DNA from: a bacterium
GTDB lineage: Bacteria; 4484-113; JALSIF01
Assembly: GCA_026981635.1 (NCBI GenBank)
Contig: JALSIF010000309.1
Location: forward strand, 1 to 7,898
Length of the DNA stretch: 7,898 nucleotides
Direction of reading: 5' to 3'
Below are positions 1-7,898 of the stretch, piece by piece. Under the pieces are notes generated by a model, which had not been told where the DNA came from, made no database searches, and was given only the letters and a program-made list of their open reading frames with translations. Made by a program: the position numbers and the translations under genes. Every line of letters begins with the position of its first letter. Positions within the stretch are counted from its first letter, which is position 1.

Positions 1-650
1 TTCTCCAGGGTGGTGCCGGCAAAGACTTGGTCGCCCGGTTCCTTCTCCCTTGGAACTGCCTCGCCGGTGAGGGCGGCCTCGCTAACTAGACCACTACCCC
101 TAACAACCCTACCGTCCAAGGGAATGTGTTCACCTGCGATCACTTGGATCAACGTACCGGGTGAGACCTCCGCACTGGGGACCATCAGAGCTTCTCCCCC
201 CGGAGTAATCACTCTCGCCTGATCAGGCTTGAGGGCTAGCAGGGCAGAAAGGCGCAGGTTCGCTCGCTTGACCGCGAAGCTCTCCAGAAACTCAGCAAAT
301 TCAAAAAGTACCACCACTACGACGGCCTCGGTCCAGGCACCAATAAACATTGCTCCGGCTACTGCCACAGTCATCAGGGAGAGGATGCTGGGGCGAAGCT
401 TTATGAGTCCCCTGACTCCCCGGGGGTAGATGTCCCAACCGGCGATAAGAGCAGACAGCAGGTAAAGGGGAAGCACCCACAAGTCTTCTGCTCCCCATTT
501 GACAGCCAGCTCTGCGGCTGCGAGAAAGACAATTGAGACCACTAACCGCCAGAACATCGGCCGGGAAGTGAGCTCCCTTATGAAGCCCAGTTCGTCCCCG
601 GGCTGCTGTTGGTTGTCCAACGTGCAAGCGCCACCACAATCACTTCCCAA
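1..650 (-). CDS. Zn/Cd/Pb-type P1B heavy-metal ATPase, N-terminal part (cut by window edge)
   Basis: This is a membrane pump expected to export Zn, Cd or Pb using ATP. About 216 codons are visible and the reading frame is open at position 3, so the P- and N-domains and the CPC-type metal site lie outside the window. Visible parts are four hydrophobic segments (about residues 32-50, 56-75, 88-106 and 107-125), the SALLALKPDQARV stretch that leads into the actuator domain, an A-domain with GEHIPLDG, and the TGE dephosphorylation motif at 60-68. The sequence around LMTVAVAGAMFIGAWTEA resembles CadA/ZntA rather than CopA, which I infer means P1B-2. I chose the TTG at 648-650 because GGAGGT (659-664) sits 8 bases before it; TTG 618-620 is an alternative. 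From that start there is no HMA domain, only a short tail with Cys5 and Cys9 (DCGGAC). It follows the ArsR-type repressor with an 11-bp overlap, suggesting one transcript and translational coupling. Confidence 0.9.
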   Translation of the reverse strand, partial: MGSDCGGACTLDNQQQPGDELGFIRELTSRPMFWRLVVSIVFLAAAELAVKWGAEDLWVLPLYLLSALIAGWDIYPRGVRGLIKLRPSILSLMTVAVAGAMFIGAWTEAVVVVVLFEFAEFLESFAVKRANLRLSALLALKPDQARVITPGGEALMVPSAEVSPGTLIQVIAGEHIPLDGRVVRGSGLVSEAALTGEAVPREKEPGDQVFAGTTLE

Positions 651-1014
651 GGGAGGCCACCTCCATCCCAGGGAGAGCACATTCCCTGGCCTTCTCCAGC
701 AGGCCCCTGAGGATGGGGCAGGCCAGGCGGTAGTAGACCACGTTGCCGTGGCGGCGAGAACGTACCAGCCTTGCCTTGCGCAGGTAGCGCAGGTGGTGGC
801 TGGTGGCGGAGGGCGAGATGCCGGCCACCGAGGCCAGGTCGCATACGCAGAGTTCGCCGGTGATCAGGGCCATGAGGATGCGGAGGCGGCTGGGGTCGGC
901 CAGGGCCTGGAAGCGGTCGGCCAGCTCCAGTACCTCCAGCTCACCCGGCAGAGCCCGGCGGGCCCGCTCCACCGCCTCGGGGTGTTGGTGGGTGATGGTG
1001 CAGCGGTCTTCCAT
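640..1014 (-). CDS. ArsR/SmtB/CadC-family metal-sensing repressor
   Basis: This is a 124-residue cytosolic winged-helix repressor that should leave DNA when it binds metal. The family core is plain: ALADPSRLRILMAL, then ELCVCDLA at 54-61, the recognition helix SPSATSHHLRYLRKARLV (67-84) and the wing HGNVVYYRL. The Cys56-x-Cys58 pair matches the alpha-3 metal site of CadC and ArsR. An N-terminal Cys5 with His9 and His11 could complete a CadC-like Cd/Pb/Zn thiolate site, while Cys99 and Cys112 lie near the C-terminus. The SmtB-type alpha-5 Asp/His zinc ligands are not evident. The ATG at 1012-1014 has no Shine-Dalgarno sequence but starts right where its promoter would begin transcription, so the mRNA is probably leaderless. 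The gene overlaps the downstream efflux ATPase, which it presumably regulates together with itself. A CadC-like Zn/Cd/Pb role is more likely than arsenic because of the ATPase partner. Confidence 0.93.
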   Translation of the reverse strand: MEDRCTITHQHPEAVERARRALPGELEVLELADRFQALADPSRLRILMALITGELCVCDLASVAGISPSATSHHLRYLRKARLVRSRRHGNVVYYRLACPILRGLLEKARECALPGMEVASLGK

Positions 1015-1021
1015 AGGTGAG

Positions 1022-1050
1022 AGTATATGAGCAACTGCTCATATAGTCAA
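1022..1050 (-). promoter_or_regulatory. Promoter of the ArsR-type repressor/ATPase operon
   Basis: On the minus strand a -35 TTGACT (plus 1045-1050) and a -10 TATACT (plus 1022-1027) are separated by exactly 17 bases. This is a near-consensus housekeeping promoter. The -10 ends only 7 bases before the repressor ATG, so transcription would begin at or next to the start codon, giving a leaderless message. The spacer is occupied by the inverted repeat described as the operator, so a bound repressor would block polymerase directly. Confidence 0.8.
1024..1045. promoter_or_regulatory. ArsR/SmtB-type operator, perfect 10-2-10 inverted repeat
   Basis: TATATGAGCA at 1024-1033 and TGCTCATATA at 1036-1045 are perfect reverse complements separated by AC. 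AT-rich imperfect repeats with a TGAxCA-type half-site and a 2-bp centre are typical of ArsR/SmtB-family operators. The site lies between the -35 and -10 of the repressor gene, which indicates autoregulation. It is about 100 bp from the divergent copper-type ATPase start, so an effect on that gene is possible but unproven. Confidence 0.85.
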
Positions 1051-1094: not shown

Positions 1095-1111
1095 ATACCC
1101 CCAACGGGTAT
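1095..1111. promoter_or_regulatory. CsoR-like copper operator candidate
   Basis: ATACCC (1095-1100) and GGGTAT (1106-1111) form a perfect 6-bp inverted repeat around CCAAC. Read on the minus strand, ATACCCGTTGGGGGTATG closely resembles CsoR operators such as the one before Bacillus copZA, as recalled from general knowledge rather than searched. It lies 37 bp before the copper-type ATPase start codon, a position where a repressor could block its promoter. No convincing -35/-10 pair could be placed around it, and no CsoR gene lies in the window. Confidence 0.55.
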
Positions 1112-1147: not shown

Positions 1148-4100
1148 ATGAGCAGTGAGGAAGGCCAGATCCAGGTGATTGATCCGGTCTGCGGGATGAA
1201 GGTTGACCCGGCCAAGGCGGCGGGCAGCTTTGAGTACAGGGGGAAGACCTACTACTTCTGTTCGGAGCACTGCCTAAGCAAGTTCAAGGCTAACCCGGAG
1301 GCATTCACCCAGGAGGAGGGAGAGGAGGAGCCCTCCATCGGTGGGCATATCCACCGTCACCATGACTCTGAGGAGAAGGAGCACCACTGTGGGTGCTGCC
1401 ATGGGGGCCACTCCCACCACTCCCACGACGGAAAGGAGTCCTCCCACCACCATTCCCACCCCCAAGCCCACGCTGCCGCTGCGGTGGGAACCCAGACTGG
1501 GGAAATAAAGGACCCGGTCTGTGGGATGACGGTTGATCCACAGAGGGCAGCGGGAAGCTTTGAATATGGCGGCAGGACCTACTACTTCTGCTCCGAGCAC
1601 TGCCTTGCCAAGTTCAAGGCCGACCCGGAAAGCTTCGTTGGGGTGGCCGCAGAGCCGGAAGAAGTGAAGGATCCGGTCTGTGGGATGACCATCAGCCCCG
1701 AGCAGGCAGCCGGCAGTGTGGAGCACAACGGAAAGCTCTATTACTTTTGCTCGGAGCACTGCCTGCACAAGTTCAGGGAGAACCCGGCAAAGTACGTCGG
1801 GGAGGAGGCTGAGCTTAAGGACCCGGTTTGCGGGATGAAGGTGGACCCGGAGGGTGCGGCAGGCAGTTTTGAATACAACGGGAAGACCTACTACTTCTGC
1901 TCCGAGCACTGCCTTGCCAAGTTCAAGGCCGACCCGGAAAGCTACCTAAAGCCCAAGGAGGCAGAGAGCTACTACTGCCCCGAGTGCGAGCACGAGCAGC
2001 CCGACCCTGGCTACTGCGTCCAGTGCGGGATTGAGCTGGTGCCCAAGGTGGAGTTTGTCCCCGGCGCCGAAGAGGGCGAGGTGGAGTACTTCTGCCCCAT
2101 GCACCCCGAAGTGGTGAGTGATAAGCCGGGGGAGTGCCCCAAGTGCGGCATGGCCCTGGAACCCCGCATCATCAGTGGTGAGGTACCCAAGGGAAGCCCC
2201 GAGCTGGCCGCATTAGCCAAGGACATGTGGTTCTCCATCATTCTGGCTATACCGATTGTTATTCTTGCCATGGGAGATTACTTCCCCGCTTTCTCCGATA
2301 GGTTTCTACCTATCAGCACCAAGCTCAACTATTGGCTTCAGTTCATCTTCATGACCCCGATCATGTTCGGCCCCGCTAGGCGCTTCTACCGCAACGCCTG
2401 GCAGGCATGGAAGGGCAGCCGCACCACCAACATGTTCACCCTGATCACCATCGGAATCGTGGCTGCCTATGTCTATAGCGTCATCGCCCTGCTCTTCCCG
2501 GGGCTCTTTCCACCCGAATTTAAGAAAAACGGGATGGTTGAGCCCTACTTTGAGACCGCCGCGGTGATCACCGCCCTGATCTTTGTGGGCGTTTATCTGG
2601 AGGCCTATGCACGTTACGCCACCAACGACGCCATCCGCAAGCTGATCGGGCTTGCCCCCAAGACGGCGCGGGTGGTCCGCAACGGTGAGGAGGTGGACAT
2701 CCCGGTAAGTGAAGTCAAGGTAGGCGACATAGTGGTGGTGCGGCCGGGGGAGAAGATCCCGGTGGACGGGGTGATCATTGAGGGTGAGAGCCAGGTGGAC
2801 GAGAGCATGGTGACCGGCGAGCCCATCCCGGTGGATAAGGAGCCGGGAGATGAGGTGATCGGCGCCACCATCAACAAGGCAGGCACCTTCAAGTTCCGCG
2901 CCACCAAGGTGGGCCGGGAGACGGTGCTGGCCCAGATCATCCAGCTGGTCCAGGAGGCCCAGGCTAGCCGTCCCCCCATCCAGAAGTTGGTGGACCGGGT
3001 ATCAAGCTACTTCGTCCCCGCGGTGATCGTCATTGCCATCATCAGCTTCTTCGCCTGGCTCTTTTGGGGGCCTAGTCCCTCCCTCAACTACGCCCTGGTC
3101 GCCTTCGTCTCGGTGCTCATCATCGCCTGCCCATGCGCCCTGGGCATCGCCACCCCGTCGGCCATCATGATCGGAACTGGAAAAGGGGCCCTGAGCGGCA
3201 TCCTCATCCGTAACGCCGAGGCGCTGGAGAAGCTGGGCAAGGTTGATGCGGTGGTGATGGACAAGACCGGCACCCTCACCAAGGGCGAGCCGGCGGTGAG
3301 CGAGGTGATCCTGGTTGACGGCGACGAGGCTGAGGTGATGGGTCTGGTGGGGGCTGTGGAGCGGGGCTCCGAGCACCCCCTGGCCGAGGCCATCGTTGAC
3401 TATGTGAAGGAGAAGGGCTACCCGGAGAGGCAGGCCACCGGCTTTGAGGCCATCTCGGGAAAGGGTGCGGTGGCTGAGGTGGAGGGCCACAAGGTGGCGG
3501 TGGGCAACCTGAAGCTGATGAGCGAGCTGGGGATTGATATCGCTCCCCTGAGAGACAAGCTTGAGCGGCTCACCTCCCGCGGTGCCACCCCGGTCTTCAT
3601 CTCCATTGACGGGAAACTCAATGGGCTGATTGCCATTGAGGACCAGCTAAAGGAGAGCAGCATCCCGGCGGTGCGGGAGCTTCACCAGATGGGCATCAAG
3701 GTGATCATGCTCACCGGCGACGACCGCCGCACCGCCAAGGCCATCGCCGAGAAGGTGGGGATTGACGAGGTGATCGCCGAGGTGCTACCGGCGGAGAAGG
3801 CGGCCAAGGTAAAGGAGCTCCAGCAGCGGGGTCTCAGGGTGGCCATGGTGGGCGACGGGATCAACGACGCCCCCGCCCTGATGCAGGCCGATGTGGGCAT
3901 CGCCATGGGTTCGGGAACCGACGTGGCCATCGAATCGGCCGGAGTTACCCTGATGCACAGCGACCCCATGGGGGTGGTAAAGGCGATCAAGCTCAGCCGG
4001 GCCACCATGGTAAATATCAAGCAGAACCTGTTTTGGGCTTTCTTCTACAACACCCTGGGCGTACCGCTGGCGGCAGGGGTGCTCTATCCCTTCATCGGCC

Positions 4101-4195
4101 TGGTGATCAGCCCGGTGTTTGCCGCCGCAGCGATGGGCTTCAGCTCGGTGAGCGTGGTCCTCAACGCCTCCCGATTGAAGTGGGTCAAGGTGTAG
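1148..4195 (+). CDS. Cu/Ag-type P1B ATPase with four N-terminal YHS domains
   Basis: This 1015-residue pump is expected to export Cu(I) or Ag(I) across the cytoplasmic membrane. The N-terminus holds four YHS domains, each opening with DPVCGM and carrying YYFCSEHC (residues 12-53, 122-163, 175-216, 225-266). A His/Cys-rich linker (67-108) lies between the first two. Next come a CPEC...CVQC ribbon (277-293) and a heavy-metal-binding module CPMHP...CPKCGM (316-335). There is no HMA domain. The core is complete: eight membrane segments (about 359-379, 393-412, 426-453, 467-488, 619-641, 647-670, 960-981, 988-1012), TGE 556-558, the CPC metal site 661-663, DKTGT with phospho-Asp705, SEHP 741-744 and GDGINDAP 902-909. 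YNTLGVP in TM7 and [11 protein letters not shown] in TM8 are the P1B-1 (Cu+) signature. GGAGGT 6 bases before the ATG supports the start, and a CsoR-like repeat lies upstream. The usual length is 700-850 residues; the excess is the N-terminal array. Confidence 0.95.
1576..1634 (+). repeat. 59-bp direct repeat, copy A (in the second YHS domain)
   Basis: This stretch, from GACCTACTACTTCTG to CCGGAAAGCT, is identical base for base to 1885-1943, 309 bp (103 codons) downstream. It encodes the [19 protein letters not shown] part of the second YHS domain. Identity at synonymous positions points to recent duplication or gene conversion between the YHS units. Confidence 0.9.
1885..1943 (+). repeat. 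59-bp direct repeat, copy B (in the fourth YHS domain)
   Basis: This is the second copy of the 59-bp repeat, in the fourth YHS domain. The first YHS domain (around 1245-1306) shares shorter stretches and the third (around 1735-1795) is more diverged, so units two and four are the closest pair. Confidence 0.9.
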
Positions 4196-4223: not shown

Positions 4224-5411
4224 TCACCTGAAGCTGCGCCTGGCCTCAAGAAGGAGGTTGAGGGCTACCACCAGCCACGCCTCCACCTCGTTTAGGCGCC
4301 CGAGTCTGTATCTGTGGTGATGGGCGGATATCAGGCTGTCAATCTGAAAGCCTGGGTAGCTCCCCACTCGCCAGCGGTCGGCGTTAATAAGGACGAAGTC
4401 GCCCCCGTAGTGGCTAAAGAGCTGGTAGCCCTGATAGACCTCAGACTGGGTGTATGCTTCCCGGTAGAAGGCGTCCTCAGCGAAAAACAGCCTCGCCTCA
4501 TCCATCGGGGTGAGCAGGTGGCGAAGGGCAGTTAGGCTTATGGCGTTGGCCAAGCTTTCTTCCACCACCCGCTCAAAGTATTCCTTTCCTGTTTTCCAGC
4601 GAGGGGGAAAGGAGGGCCAGGGTCTCCTTGCCCTGAAATCCATCATGCCATGGCCAAGCTCATGGGACAGGGTCGCAACCAGGTTGAAGAGGAAGCCCCA
4701 CAATAGTCTTCTTGCAAGCACTAAATTTCTCCCCCTGAGCCTCCAGATTACGGGTGTACGGTGATATTTAATCTGTAGTATCCTCCAAGGAAGGATCCGC
4801 CAAATTCCCCAGAGATTCATGGCCGAAGCCGCGCTGGGCGGGAACTTGAGGAACCTCTGCGGGCAGAGTAAGATGAGTGGATCGAAGTAGTCAAAGTCTT
4901 TGTGGCCCTTGGGCAGGTAAAGTCCCCAGGCTGCTAGCCACCAGGTCGGCTTTTTCTTTGGCTCCCTCTTTTCCCCAGCCTCTTCCCAGCCTCCGCCCCT
5001 TACCTGAGTTTCATCCAGTGGGATCCACTCTTCCTCGGGAAGCTCGCGCAGATCTTCCGGGGTTTCAATGAAGGGGGGAGGTGATGGCTTTATGGGACGC
5101 TGGGCCTCCGCAAGCCGGGTGAATATGGACATGAGAAATGGGAAAAGCTCCTCGGGGTCAATCCCCTCCCACCTTTCAACCTCATCAAGGATGCTGTCCA
5201 GAACCTCTCGGGGTACGTACTTGAGTTTGGCTGGGGGATAGATTGAATCAATGGTTCTCGGTGAAACTGTGATAACTGGAATACGGCTCCAGACACTCCT
5301 GAGACCCCGTGATGTGGCAGCCTTGCATAGTGTAGTTATGTCATCACTAAATCTAAAACCAGAGTCCCAGTCGGTGATTGTGTAGGGCCTAAGCTTCTTG
5401 CTGGACTGCAT
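4224..5411 (-). CDS. Unknown protein with HExxH motif, putative zinc metallopeptidase
   Basis: I do not recognise the family of this 395-residue protein. It has HELGH at 250-254 (4650-4664), preceded by a hydrophobic helix-like stretch (about 235-249), and VVEESLANAISL at 282-293. The HExxH plus a Glu about 30 residues later is the layout of gluzincin-type zinc peptidases, and HELGH...EE.LAN recalls the IrrE/ImmA type. The overall sequence does not obviously match that family, so the function is inferred from the motif only. Residues 105-155 are a Pro/Glu-rich, probably disordered linker. No signal peptide is evident. GGAGG (5417-5421) lies 5 bases before the ATG. It converges on the copper-type ATPase across 28 bp and has no clear functional partner in the window. 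Its codon choice looks less GC-biased than the genes on its right. Confidence 0.75.
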   Translation of the reverse strand: MQSSKKLRPYTITDWDSGFRFSDDITTLCKAATSRGLRSVWSRIPVITVSPRTIDSIYPPAKLKYVPREVLDSILDEVERWEGIDPEELFPFLMSIFTRLAEAQRPIKPSPPPFIETPEDLRELPEEEWIPLDETQVRGGGWEEAGEKREPKKKPTWWLAAWGLYLPKGHKDFDYFDPLILLCPQRFLKFPPSAASAMNLWGIWRILPWRILQIKYHRTPVIWRLRGRNLVLARRLLWGFLFNLVATLSHELGHGMMDFRARRPWPSFPPRWKTGKEYFERVVEESLANAISLTALRHLLTPMDEARLFFAEDAFYREAYTQSEVYQGYQLFSHYGGDFVLINADRWRVGSYPGFQIDSLISAHHHRYRLGRLNEVEAWLVVALNLLLEARRSFR

Positions 5412-6106: not shown

Positions 6107-6403
6107 CTATCTTTCTAGCCCATTTCCCTGATCTGATGGTGGTGTGACAAGCGGTGGCTCTCCCCTGAGCAGGTCGAGGATCTCCCGGTGCTCGCGGGAG
6201 AGGCGCTCCAGGTGGAGGGTGAGAAGCTCTGCCACCAGCCGGTCATCGCTCTCAAGCTTTTTCTGCAGGAAGCTCTGGTAGCGGGCCTCAAGCTCTCCCC
6301 GCTGGCGCTGGCGCAGGGTGAGGGTACGGGCCAGGGCGAAACTGAGCGGGATGAGCAGTGCCTCCACCGCCGCAATCAGTCTGAGCAGCTCAGCTTCGCT
6401 CAA
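6107..6403 (-). CDS. Small protein with one N-terminal hydrophobic helix and a long helical tail
   Basis: The family is not recognised. The 98-residue product has a hydrophobic segment at about 8-27 (LRLIAAVEALLIPLSFALA), then a charged region rich in Arg, Glu and Leu (about 28-80) that looks helical or coiled-coil, and a Pro-rich end. One membrane anchor with a cytosolic helix is a reasonable picture. The start is uncertain: TTG (6401-6403) gives this length, and an in-frame GTG about 12 codons later is possible. No strong ribosome binding site precedes either. It lies in the same frame as the gene just upstream, separated only by TGA 6410-6412 and two codons, so it could be made by coupling or be the broken end of a longer protein. 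Its position after tail-like genes recalls phage lysis-region small membrane proteins, but there is no direct match. Confidence 0.6.
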   Translation of the reverse strand: MSEAELLRLIAAVEALLIPLSFALARTLTLRQRQRGELEARYQSFLQKKLESDDRLVAELLTLHLERLSREHREILDLLRGEPPLVTPPSDQGNGLER

Positions 6404-6409
6404 GGGGGA

Positions 6410-6712
6410 TCAGCCCTGCTCTGGCGCCCCAGATGGAGGGCCGGCCGGGTCGGTCACTTTGCTCAGCCGCTCGGGCTGGCTCATTAGCACCGTCTCAATG
6501 AGCAGGTTTAGGAGCACGGTGCTGATCTCGCCGGGGTAGAGCCGGCGGAAGCGGCGCTGGACCTCCCGTCGGGCCACCTCGCCGCTGAGGCCCTCCTGTT
6601 CAACCTCCCTCACCAGTTTGGAGAGAAGCAATGCCTCGCGCCAGAAGAGCTCGGTGAGCAGCGAGAGGCTGAACCTTATGAGATGCCTGGAAAGCTTGCC
6701 CAAAAGACTCAC
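6410..6712 (-). CDS. Small helical protein of unknown function
   Basis: I do not recognise this 100-residue protein. It is predicted largely helical: an amphipathic or hydrophobic N-terminus (LLGKLSRHLIRFSLSLLTEL, about 3-22), a charged middle (REVQRRFRRLYPGE) and a second hydrophobic stretch (ISTVLLNLLIETVL, about 63-76), ending in a Pro/Gly tail. The GTG start at 6710-6712 is well supported by GAGGAGGT (6721-6728) 8 bases upstream. It follows the 239-residue gene by 42 bp on the same strand, so it is probably co-transcribed. The next small gene continues in the same frame after the TGA. Confidence 0.65.
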   Translation of the reverse strand: MSLLGKLSRHLIRFSLSLLTELFWREALLLSKLVREVEQEGLSGEVARREVQRRFRRLYPGEISTVLLNLLIETVLMSQPERLSKVTDPAGPPSGAPEQG

Positions 6713-6720
6713 TTCAAATC

Positions 6721-6728
6721 ACCTCCTC
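6721..6728 (-). promoter_or_regulatory. Strong ribosome binding site selecting a GTG start
   Basis: On the minus strand GAGGAGGT is followed by 8 bases and GTG (6710-6712). It is among the strongest ribosome binding sites in the window and decides the start of the 100-residue gene. Confidence 0.8.
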
Positions 6729-6754
6729 GGTTGATGTCAGATCTGCCCATGACC

Positions 6755-7474
6755 TCAGGCGGAAAGCTCCAGCCAGGGCAGGTCTCCCCCTGCCGCCCCC
6801 GGCGAGAGGCTCAGGCTCTGGGGCAGGGGCTGGCCTGAGGGGTGGGCCTGGATGAGGTGGGCGAGGGCGGCCACTCCACCGGCCAGGGAGTAGGTGTGAA
6901 AGGAGGCAGCAAGGGGGGCGAGCAGGCGGAAGGCCAGGTAGATCGCCCCCTGGGAAAGCTCCGGTGCGCCAGTCAGGGGGAACCGGTAGGTATCCCCGCC
7001 CTCAGCCTGGGCTGTGCTGCCGTCAAGGCTGAGGCTGGCCAGAAGGTCGGCCTGGCTGGCTCCCCGGGGCAGGTAGAGGCCCACTTCGGAAAACTCCACC
7101 GCTGGCGGCGCCTGGTCCAGGGCTAGGCGGATGGCGCGGGGAATGAGGCGGCCGGGGAGGTGGAGCAGGGCGAGGTAGAGCTGGTCGGTGATGAGGGGAG
7201 CGGTGCCGCTGGGCAGGGGAGTTGCGGCAAGGTAGATGACGGGGGCGGTGAGGGTGACGGTGCCGCCGCCGGCGGAAACCGCGATGCCTCCCTGGCCCTC
7301 CATGGTCACCCTGCCGCTGGCCTCGCCGCCGGCAAGATCTGAGATCACCCTCACCCCGTCCAGGCCCAGGCCGCCGGTGTTCTCCGGTGGAGCGGGGCCG
7401 GCCCCCGGCTGAGCCACCCTCACTCCCGCCTGCACCTGCCGGCGGGAAAGAAACCTCTTAAGCTCCTCCATCAC
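6755..7474 (-). CDS. Unknown 239-residue protein, possibly a tail-like structural component
   Basis: The function is not recognised. There is a short charged N-terminus (MEELKRFLSRRQVQAG), a Gly/Pro/Ala-rich stretch (about 20-55), a beta-rich segment (GRVTMEGQGGIAVSAGGGTVTL, about 54-75), then alternating hydrophobic segments including VEFSEVGLYLPRGASQADLL and a Leu/Ala-rich C-terminus. No catalytic motif, signal peptide or clear membrane helix is visible. Gly-rich beta character next to a tail-hub-like gene would suit a phage or tail-like structural protein, but this is inference. Two starts are possible: GTG 7472-7474 (4-bp overlap with the upstream gene, used here) or ATG 7469-7471 (TGATG arrangement with the upstream stop). 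A GGAGGGG sequence about 8-10 bases before the GTG favours it slightly. Translation is probably coupled to the upstream gene. Confidence 0.7.
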   Translation of the reverse strand: MMEELKRFLSRRQVQAGVRVAQPGAGPAPPENTGGLGLDGVRVISDLAGGEASGRVTMEGQGGIAVSAGGGTVTLTAPVIYLAATPLPSGTAPLITDQLYLALLHLPGRLIPRAIRLALDQAPPAVEFSEVGLYLPRGASQADLLASLSLDGSTAQAEGGDTYRFPLTGAPELSQGAIYLAFRLLAPLAASFHTYSLAGGVAALAHLIQAHPSGQPLPQSLSLSPGAAGGDLPWLELSA

Positions 7475-7898
7475 GGGTCAAACCCCTCCACCGTGGTGAG
7501 CCTTCCCTCCACCTCGGTCTGCCAGGCGCGGTGGACCACCGCGGTGACCAGCACCAGGTAGTCCTTCCCACTTATGGGATGGGTGATCTGGACCGTCATC
7601 CCCGGCCTCACCACCGGGTCAAAGGCAAAGCTTGCCCTCACCCTCACCCTGGGCATGGTGGAGCTGTCCCGAAGGCTTGCCGCCCGGGCCACCGCCGCCG
7701 CACTGCCCAGCTCGGTTCCACGATCCTCCACCTTGACCAGCGGGCCCACCAGGCTAAGGCGTCCTAGGGTGCTCGGTGCGTAGCCGGGGGCGCTGGGGTC
7801 GCTGGGCTGGAGGGTGGCCACCGCCTCCTTGTGGCCGTCGGGGATAACCGTAAGCTCCCCCAGCCCCAGGGCCAGGCTGTCCTCCCCCGGACTGTCAA
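7471..7898 (-). CDS. C-terminal part of a tail/hub-like structural protein (cut by window edge)
   Basis: The frame is open through the right edge, so about 142 C-terminal codons are seen and the start lies outside. A GTG at 7819-7821 could be read as a start, but the AGGAGG before it is only 2-3 bases away and coding-like sequence continues upstream. The segment around 7540-7660, PRVRVRASFAFDPVVRPG then MTVQITHPISGKDYLVLVTAV and EVEGRLTTVEG, recalls the C-terminal beta domain of phage tail hub or protein-D-like proteins: a pattern of x-P-x-V-R-P-G-M-x-V followed by G-x-Y-L-V and a closing E-G-x-x-T. That resemblance is from memory and weak. It overlaps the next gene by 1-4 bases, so the two are one operon. 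Confidence 0.5.
   Translation of the reverse strand, partial: DSPGEDSLALGLGELTVIPDGHKEAVATLQPSDPSAPGYAPSTLGRLSLVGPLVKVEDRGTELGSAAAVARAASLRDSSTMPRVRVRASFAFDPVVRPGMTVQITHPISGKDYLVLVTAVVHRAWQTEVEGRLTTVEGFDP

What the first reader, a model, noticed from the sequence alone, without database searches (positions are those of the whole stretch)
1148..2170. Copper-type ATPase carrying a four-YHS metal-binding array instead of HMA domains
Copper P1B ATPases usually carry HMA domains, or one YHS or heavy-metal-binding module. Here four YHS units (DPVCGM...YYFCSEHC), a linker with about 19 His and several Cys, and two CxxC modules precede the first membrane helix, giving about 350 residues of potential metal ligands. 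It may act as a metal buffer, a stepwise delivery chain or a regulatory sensor for the pump.
Basis: partly seen in the sequence, partly recalled or inferred. Interest (0 to 1): 0.65.

Follow-up and report, generated by a model that had tools for sequence, protein, structure and literature searches.

The report
Copper pump with four YHS domains
The gene encodes an ordinary bacterial copper-export pump of the Legionella CopA type whose cytoplasmic tail carries four copies of a small metal-binding domain (YHS), where related pumps usually have none, one or two; the longer tail is unusual but was also found in another bacterial phylum.

Summary
There is no HMA domain. The core is a deep sister of the LpCopA/SilP-like HMBD clade (support 97/93), and its best solved-structure match is LpCopA. 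The plan is therefore an extended version of a known kind. Pumps with two YHS plus HMBD are common across phyla and described for Rhizobiales. In about 1,540 genomes I found three other ATPases with three YHS and one with four YHS plus the same two HMBD-like modules, in Pseudomonadota and in a phylum represented by an Acidobacteriota MAG. The window's four copies are closest to each other, share a 59-nt identical tract and are under purifying selection, so they arose by local duplication, probably independently of the other four-copy array. The most likely role, by analogy with LpCopA, is copper sensing that relieves autoinhibition, with extra copper capacity. Delivery or pure buffering cannot be excluded. 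It is a new variant of a known kind, of modest interest.

The parts
1148..4195 (+). copA-type gene, 1015 aa P1B-1 copper ATPase
   Evidence: ORF; Pfam and NCBIfam: TIGR01511 Cu ATPase 620 bits over cut-off 397
1181..1315 (+). YHS copy 1 (aa 12-56)
   Evidence: PF04945; AlphaFold pLDDT above 90
1316..1510 (+). His-rich linker (aa 57-121), 16 His and 3 Cys
   Evidence: count; pLDDT below 50 at aa 61-116, i.e. disordered
1511..1645 (+). YHS copy 2 (aa 122-166)
   Evidence: 59-nt tract 1576-1634 identical to copy 4
1670..1804 (+). YHS copy 3 (aa 175-219), the most divergent copy
1820..1954 (+). YHS copy 4 (aa 225-269)
   Evidence: tract 1885-1943 identical to copy 2
1970..2047 (+). degenerate HMBD-like module (aa 275-300, CPEC...CVQCG)
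   Evidence: aligns with the first HMBD of L006, L007 and L148-L150; same predicted strand pattern as the HMBD; below the Pfam cut-off
2087..2167 (+). canonical HMBD (aa 314-340, CPMHPE...CPKCGM)
   Evidence: PF19335; 8OVL by sequence and by fold, rmsd 1.0 over 33 residues
2198..4192 (+). membrane and catalytic core (aa 351-1015) with CPC at aa 661-663, DKTGT, YNx4P and MxxSS
1095..1111 (.). CsoR-operator-like palindrome ATACCC-N5-GGGTAT, about 37 bp upstream of the start codon
   Evidence: nine exact copies in the genome; assignment to CsoR is inference
1021..1048 (.). 13-2-13 palindrome overlapping the promoter of the divergent arsR-type gene
640..1014 (-). ArsR/SmtB-type metalloregulator gene, divergent
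   Evidence: PF01022 and NF033788
3..680 (-). second, zinc/cadmium-like P1B ATPase gene, cut by the window edge
   Evidence: TIGR01525 and TIGR01512

Best explanation
It is a cytoplasmic-membrane Cu+/Ag+ exporter (P1B-1), a deep relative of the HMBD-type pumps (LpCopA, SilP, Rhizobiales group VII), whose N-terminal metal-binding tail was lengthened by local duplication to four YHS domains. Shown here: the sequence, predicted fold, ancestry and promoter layout. Inferred: transcription is induced by copper through a CsoR-type operator. At low copper the flexible tail restrains the pump. When Cu+ loads the HMBD and the YHS domains (Asp plus three Cys each), the restraint is released. The extra YHS copies raise copper capacity and grade the response rather than passing ions stepwise to the membrane.
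For: P1B-1 motifs and domain matches. Core plus HMBD match LpCopA 3RFU at 783 bits over aa 299-1013. The core tree puts the window beside the HMBD clade at 97/93. The HMBD folds like 8OVL, rmsd 1.0 over 33 residues. In LpCopA the HMBD senses copper and its flexible tail autoinhibits, while removal barely changes activity and added HMBD core does not help transport (PMC11970713). The YHS domain of M. phlei adenylyl cyclase makes the enzyme copper-activated, with Asp plus three Cys the proposed ligands (PMC4626032). All four copies keep these residues, with dN/dS 0.13-0.28 between copies. The CsoR-like site recurs beside cytochrome b, cytochrome-c assembly and Met-rich genes.
Against: No biochemical test of YHS domains in an ATPase was found; PMC4626032 states that copper binding by them had not been shown in the transporters. 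LpCopA has no YHS, so the analogy covers only the HMBD and the flexible tail. No free CopZ-type chaperone was found in the (85% complete) genome, which leaves room for a delivery role.
Confidence: 0.55

Rival explanations
1. The array is mainly a copper buffer (metallothionein-like sink) tethered to the pump, holding several Cu+ ions until they can be exported, with no regulatory role.
For: 22 Cys and 24 His before the first helix; disordered His-rich linker; no stand-alone CopZ chaperone found among HMA proteins of the genome; copy number varies from one to four in relatives.
Against: Each copy is a folded, strongly conserved single-site domain under purifying selection, more than a mere thiol sink needs; the one mechanistic study of a close relative that I read finds regulation (PMC11970713).
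Confidence: 0.25
2. The array is a stepwise delivery chain that accepts Cu+ from the cytosol and hands it along the YHS domains to the HMBD and the membrane entry site, replacing a CopZ chaperone.
For: Linear order YHS-YHS-YHS-HMBD'-HMBD-membrane; no CopZ found in the incomplete genome.
Against: Removing the LpCopA metal-binding domain leaves near-normal activity, and added domain core does not stimulate transport (PMC11970713); inter-domain orientation is not predicted with confidence (pTM 0.33).
Confidence: 0.1
3. The extra YHS copies are near-neutral by-products of repeat expansion and conversion, with one or two copies doing all the work.
For: Copies 2 and 4 share a 59-nt identical tract, a mark of recent conversion; closest analogues manage with one or two copies.
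Against: All ligands are intact in all four copies and dN/dS between copies is 0.13-0.28; four copies also arose elsewhere, apparently independently. Conversion itself could keep copies alike.
Confidence: 0.1

Closest known systems
Legionella pneumophila CopA (LpCopA; PDB 3RFU, 4BBJ, 8OVL)
   Same: HMBD next to the membrane core, His-rich flexible N-terminal segment, P1B-1 motifs, no HMA; best solved match, aa 299-1013
   Different: LpCopA has no YHS domain; here four YHS and a second, degenerate HMBD precede the HMBD
Rhizobiales Cu-ATPases of group VII, 'P1B-1b' (PMC5552934; e.g. L121)
   Same: His-rich stretch, tandem YHS, HMBD with CPKC, CPC core
   Different: two YHS, not four; His-rich stretch lies before the YHS, not between copies 1 and 2; core about 50% identical and outside their clade
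Uncharacterised Pseudomonadota ATPases L149 (four YHS), L148 and L150 (three YHS)
   Same: YHS array, degenerate HMBD, then canonical HMBD, then CopA core
   Different: their copies are only about 40-52% identical to one another, against 61-82% here, so the arrays probably expanded separately; no long His-rich linker between YHS copies
HMA-type CopA (e.g. A. fulgidus CopA; L025 Bipolaricaulota)
   Same: P1B-1 core, up to 59% identity
   Different: HMA domains, absent here

Membership tests
P1B-1 Cu+/Ag+ ATPase | CPC in TM6, YN(x4)P in TM7, MxxSS in TM8, DKTGT | tested here: met
   aa 661-663 CPC, YNTLGVP, MGFSS, DKTGT705-709
P1B-1 Cu+/Ag+ ATPase | copper-dependent ATPase or transport activity | not testable with these tools
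   needs biochemistry
HMBD-type CopA (LpCopA/SilP-like) | HMBD directly before the membrane core | tested here: met
   PF19335 aa 314-339; 8OVL by sequence and fold
HMBD-type CopA (LpCopA/SilP-like) | core groups with the HMBD clade | tested here: met
   sister of all 12 sampled HMBD-type cores, 97/93, on a long branch
HMBD-type CopA (LpCopA/SilP-like) | no HMA domain | tested here: met
   no HMA match
Rhizobiales group VII P1B-1b | two YHS after an N-terminal His-rich stretch | tested here: not met
   four YHS, His-rich stretch between copies 1 and 2
HMA-type CopA | one or more N-terminal HMA domains | tested here: not met
   none found
YHS/TRASH metal-binding domain | D/C-x2-C-x(n)-C-x3-C ligands in the YHS/TRASH fold | tested here: met
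   all four copies; pLDDT above 90; weak fold matches to L24e and toluene monooxygenase, both known YHS/TRASH bearers
YHS/TRASH metal-binding domain | binds Cu | not testable with these tools
   shown only indirectly in M. phlei adenylyl cyclase (PMC4626032)

The most novel reading that the evidence does not exclude
YHS copy number is an evolutionary dial on copper pumps: arrays expand by local duplication and conversion, independently in several lineages, to set the copper threshold or capacity of an autoinhibited CopA, a bacterial parallel to the six-HMA tail of human ATP7B.
Probability: 0.25. Interest if true: 0.5.

Novelty: new variant of a known kind. Interest (0 to 1): 0.32.

Why it matters
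The role of N-terminal metal-binding domains in copper pumps is disputed (delivery, sensing or buffering), and I found no test of YHS domains in an ATPase. A natural series of otherwise similar pumps with one, two, three and four YHS copies would let copy number be tested directly against activation and capacity. The finding itself is a moderate extension of a known architecture.

Tried and rejected
1) Domain shuffling (YHS-HMBD tail grafted on an HMA-type core), suggested because the best full-length match is an HMA-type pump (59%) and local motifs look HMA-like: not supported, since the core groups with the HMBD clade at 97/93 (89 in the quick tree). The branch is long, so some doubt remains.

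2) A unique architecture: rejected, as L149 has four YHS and L148, L150 and L177 have three.

3) Common descent with the four-copy Pseudomonadota array: not favoured, as the window copies form one group (SH-aLRT 84, only 44 columns) and L149's do not.

4) Viral or mobile origin: a viral-contig scan found no relative. Plasmids hold many HMBD/YHS pumps, but no array of three or more was seen among the six regions fetched and read.

6) The plasmid hit in Meiothermus with four matched pieces was one single-YHS protein.

8) The pdb_via list is dominated by one domain, so absence of other folds there means nothing.

Full report
Observation. The window holds a 1015-residue ORF at 1148-4195 on the + strand. 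Pfam finds four YHS domains, one HMBD and an E1-E2 ATPase/hydrolase core, with no HMA. TIGR01511 (copper-translocating ATPase) scores 620 bits against a cut-off of 397. The four YHS units are the only YHS matches in the held genome (1.75 Mb, 317 contigs, 85% complete), each above the curated cut-off. The His count of the linker is 16 rather than about 19; the whole N-terminus has 22 Cys and 24 His.

Anatomy. Order: YHS1 (aa 12-56), His-rich linker (57-121), YHS2 (122-166), YHS3 (175-219), YHS4 (225-269), a CPEC/CVQC module (275-300), the HMBD (314-340), first helix at about 351. AlphaFold gives all four YHS pLDDT of about 90 or more, leaves aa 61-116 disordered and gives the CPEC/CVQC module the same strand pattern as the HMBD. 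Relatives with two HMBDs align their first one with this module, so I read it as a degenerate HMBD; it does not reach the Pfam cut-off, so that is inference. The HMBD matches the NMR structure of the LpCopA metal-binding domain (8OVL) by sequence and by fold, rmsd 1.0 over 33 residues. YHS copies match L24e/TRASH and toluene-monooxygenase folds weakly, as expected for domains of 45 residues. The core has CPC (aa 661-663), DKTGT, YNx4P and MxxSS; CPC, YN(x)4P and MxxSS are the P1B-1 signature named in PMC5552934.

Relatives. Best overall matches are HMA-type pumps at up to 59%, but the best solved structure is LpCopA over aa 299-1013 (783 bits). In a careful tree of 40 cores the window is the sister of all 12 sampled HMBD-type cores (97/93). 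A classmate genome has an HMBD-type pump with two YHS and two HMBDs (L007) that lies inside that clade, so the window gene is a separate, deeper line.

How unusual is the array? Two YHS plus HMBD is common: Rhizobium and Thioclava plasmids and many genomes. It is described for 15 Rhizobiales proteins, with a His-rich start and two TRASH/YHS copies (PMC5552934). I searched the triple-YHS stretch in about 1,540 genomes (385 spread relatives; two small phyla; 398 from the phylum of a Ralstonia record; 400 from the phylum of a Chloroflexi record; 347 from the phylum of an Acidobacteriota record). ATPases with three strong YHS: L148, L150 and L177. With four: L149, followed by the same degenerate plus canonical HMBD pair. 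E-value cut-offs of 1e-15 to 1e-24 make these lower bounds. Three or four copies are thus rare but recurrent.

Origin of the copies. The window copies are 61-82% identical to each other but 43-70% to copies elsewhere, and they form one group in a short-alignment tree (84), while L149's do not. Copies 2 and 4 share a 59-nt identical tract (no codon shuffle of 100,000 reached it) although overall 83% identical, pointing to recent conversion. dN/dS between copies is 0.13-0.28. So the array grew locally and is under constraint.

Regulation. The gene is divergent from an ArsR/SmtB-type regulator and a zinc/cadmium-type ATPase. The intergenic region has a 13-2-13 palindrome overlapping the predicted arsR promoter and, about 37 bp before the copA start, ATACCC-N5-GGGTAT, which resembles CsoR operators as I recall them. 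That motif has nine exact copies in the genome (17 sites at up to one mismatch, against 2 per strand for the reversed control). Neighbours include cytochrome b, a cytochrome-c assembly protein and a Met-rich protein, one single-mismatch site lies upstream of a CsoR-family gene on C24, and four CsoR-family genes are present. Copper control is therefore likely but inferred.

Mechanism. For LpCopA, the HMBD binds Ag+/Cu+ through three sulfurs, truncations keep near-normal activity, CXXC mutants lose about 70%, and the flexible tail is proposed to autoinhibit until copper binds (PMC11970713). For YHS, the M. phlei adenylyl cyclase is copper-activated through its YHS domain, with Asp and three Cys as proposed ligands; the author notes that copper binding by YHS in transporters had not been shown (PMC4626032). 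All four copies keep these ligands. I therefore favour sensing/autoinhibition with added capacity; buffering is the main rival, and a stepwise delivery chain is less likely. None of this was tested on this protein.

Verdict. New variant of a known kind, moderate-to-low interest.

Noticed in passing
window 4224-5411 (-): 395-aa ORF with an HELGHG motif (metallopeptidase-like by eye) and no Pfam or PHROG match.
   Followed up: partly
window 6107-7896 (-): Four adjacent ORFs (98, 100, 239 and at least 141 aa) in one direction with no significant Pfam or PHROG match.
   Followed up: partly
G000 contigs C5, C40, C117, C123, C124, C287, C292, C309, C315: Palindrome ATACCC-N5-GGGTAT occurs nine times exactly, some sites close to cytochrome b, cytochrome-c assembly, Met-rich and cupin genes; looks like a copper (CsoR-type) regulon.
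   Followed up: partly
L189 (G000 C24): 247-aa membrane protein with a C-terminal HMA domain (MerT-like by eye) next to a CsoR-family gene.
   Followed up: no
L188 (G000 C293): Second copper-type ATPase of the genome, with an HMA and a Cys-rich N-terminus (FixI/CcoI-like by eye).
   Followed up: no
L179, L169, L111, L119: Triple-YHS proteins that are not ATPases: a 198-aa stand-alone array (L179), a permease-like protein with a C-terminal array (L169) and apparently secreted ones (L111, L119).
   Followed up: no
window 1576-1634 and 1885-1943: 59-nt identical tract between YHS copies 2 and 4, skipping copy 3: likely gene conversion.
   Followed up: yes
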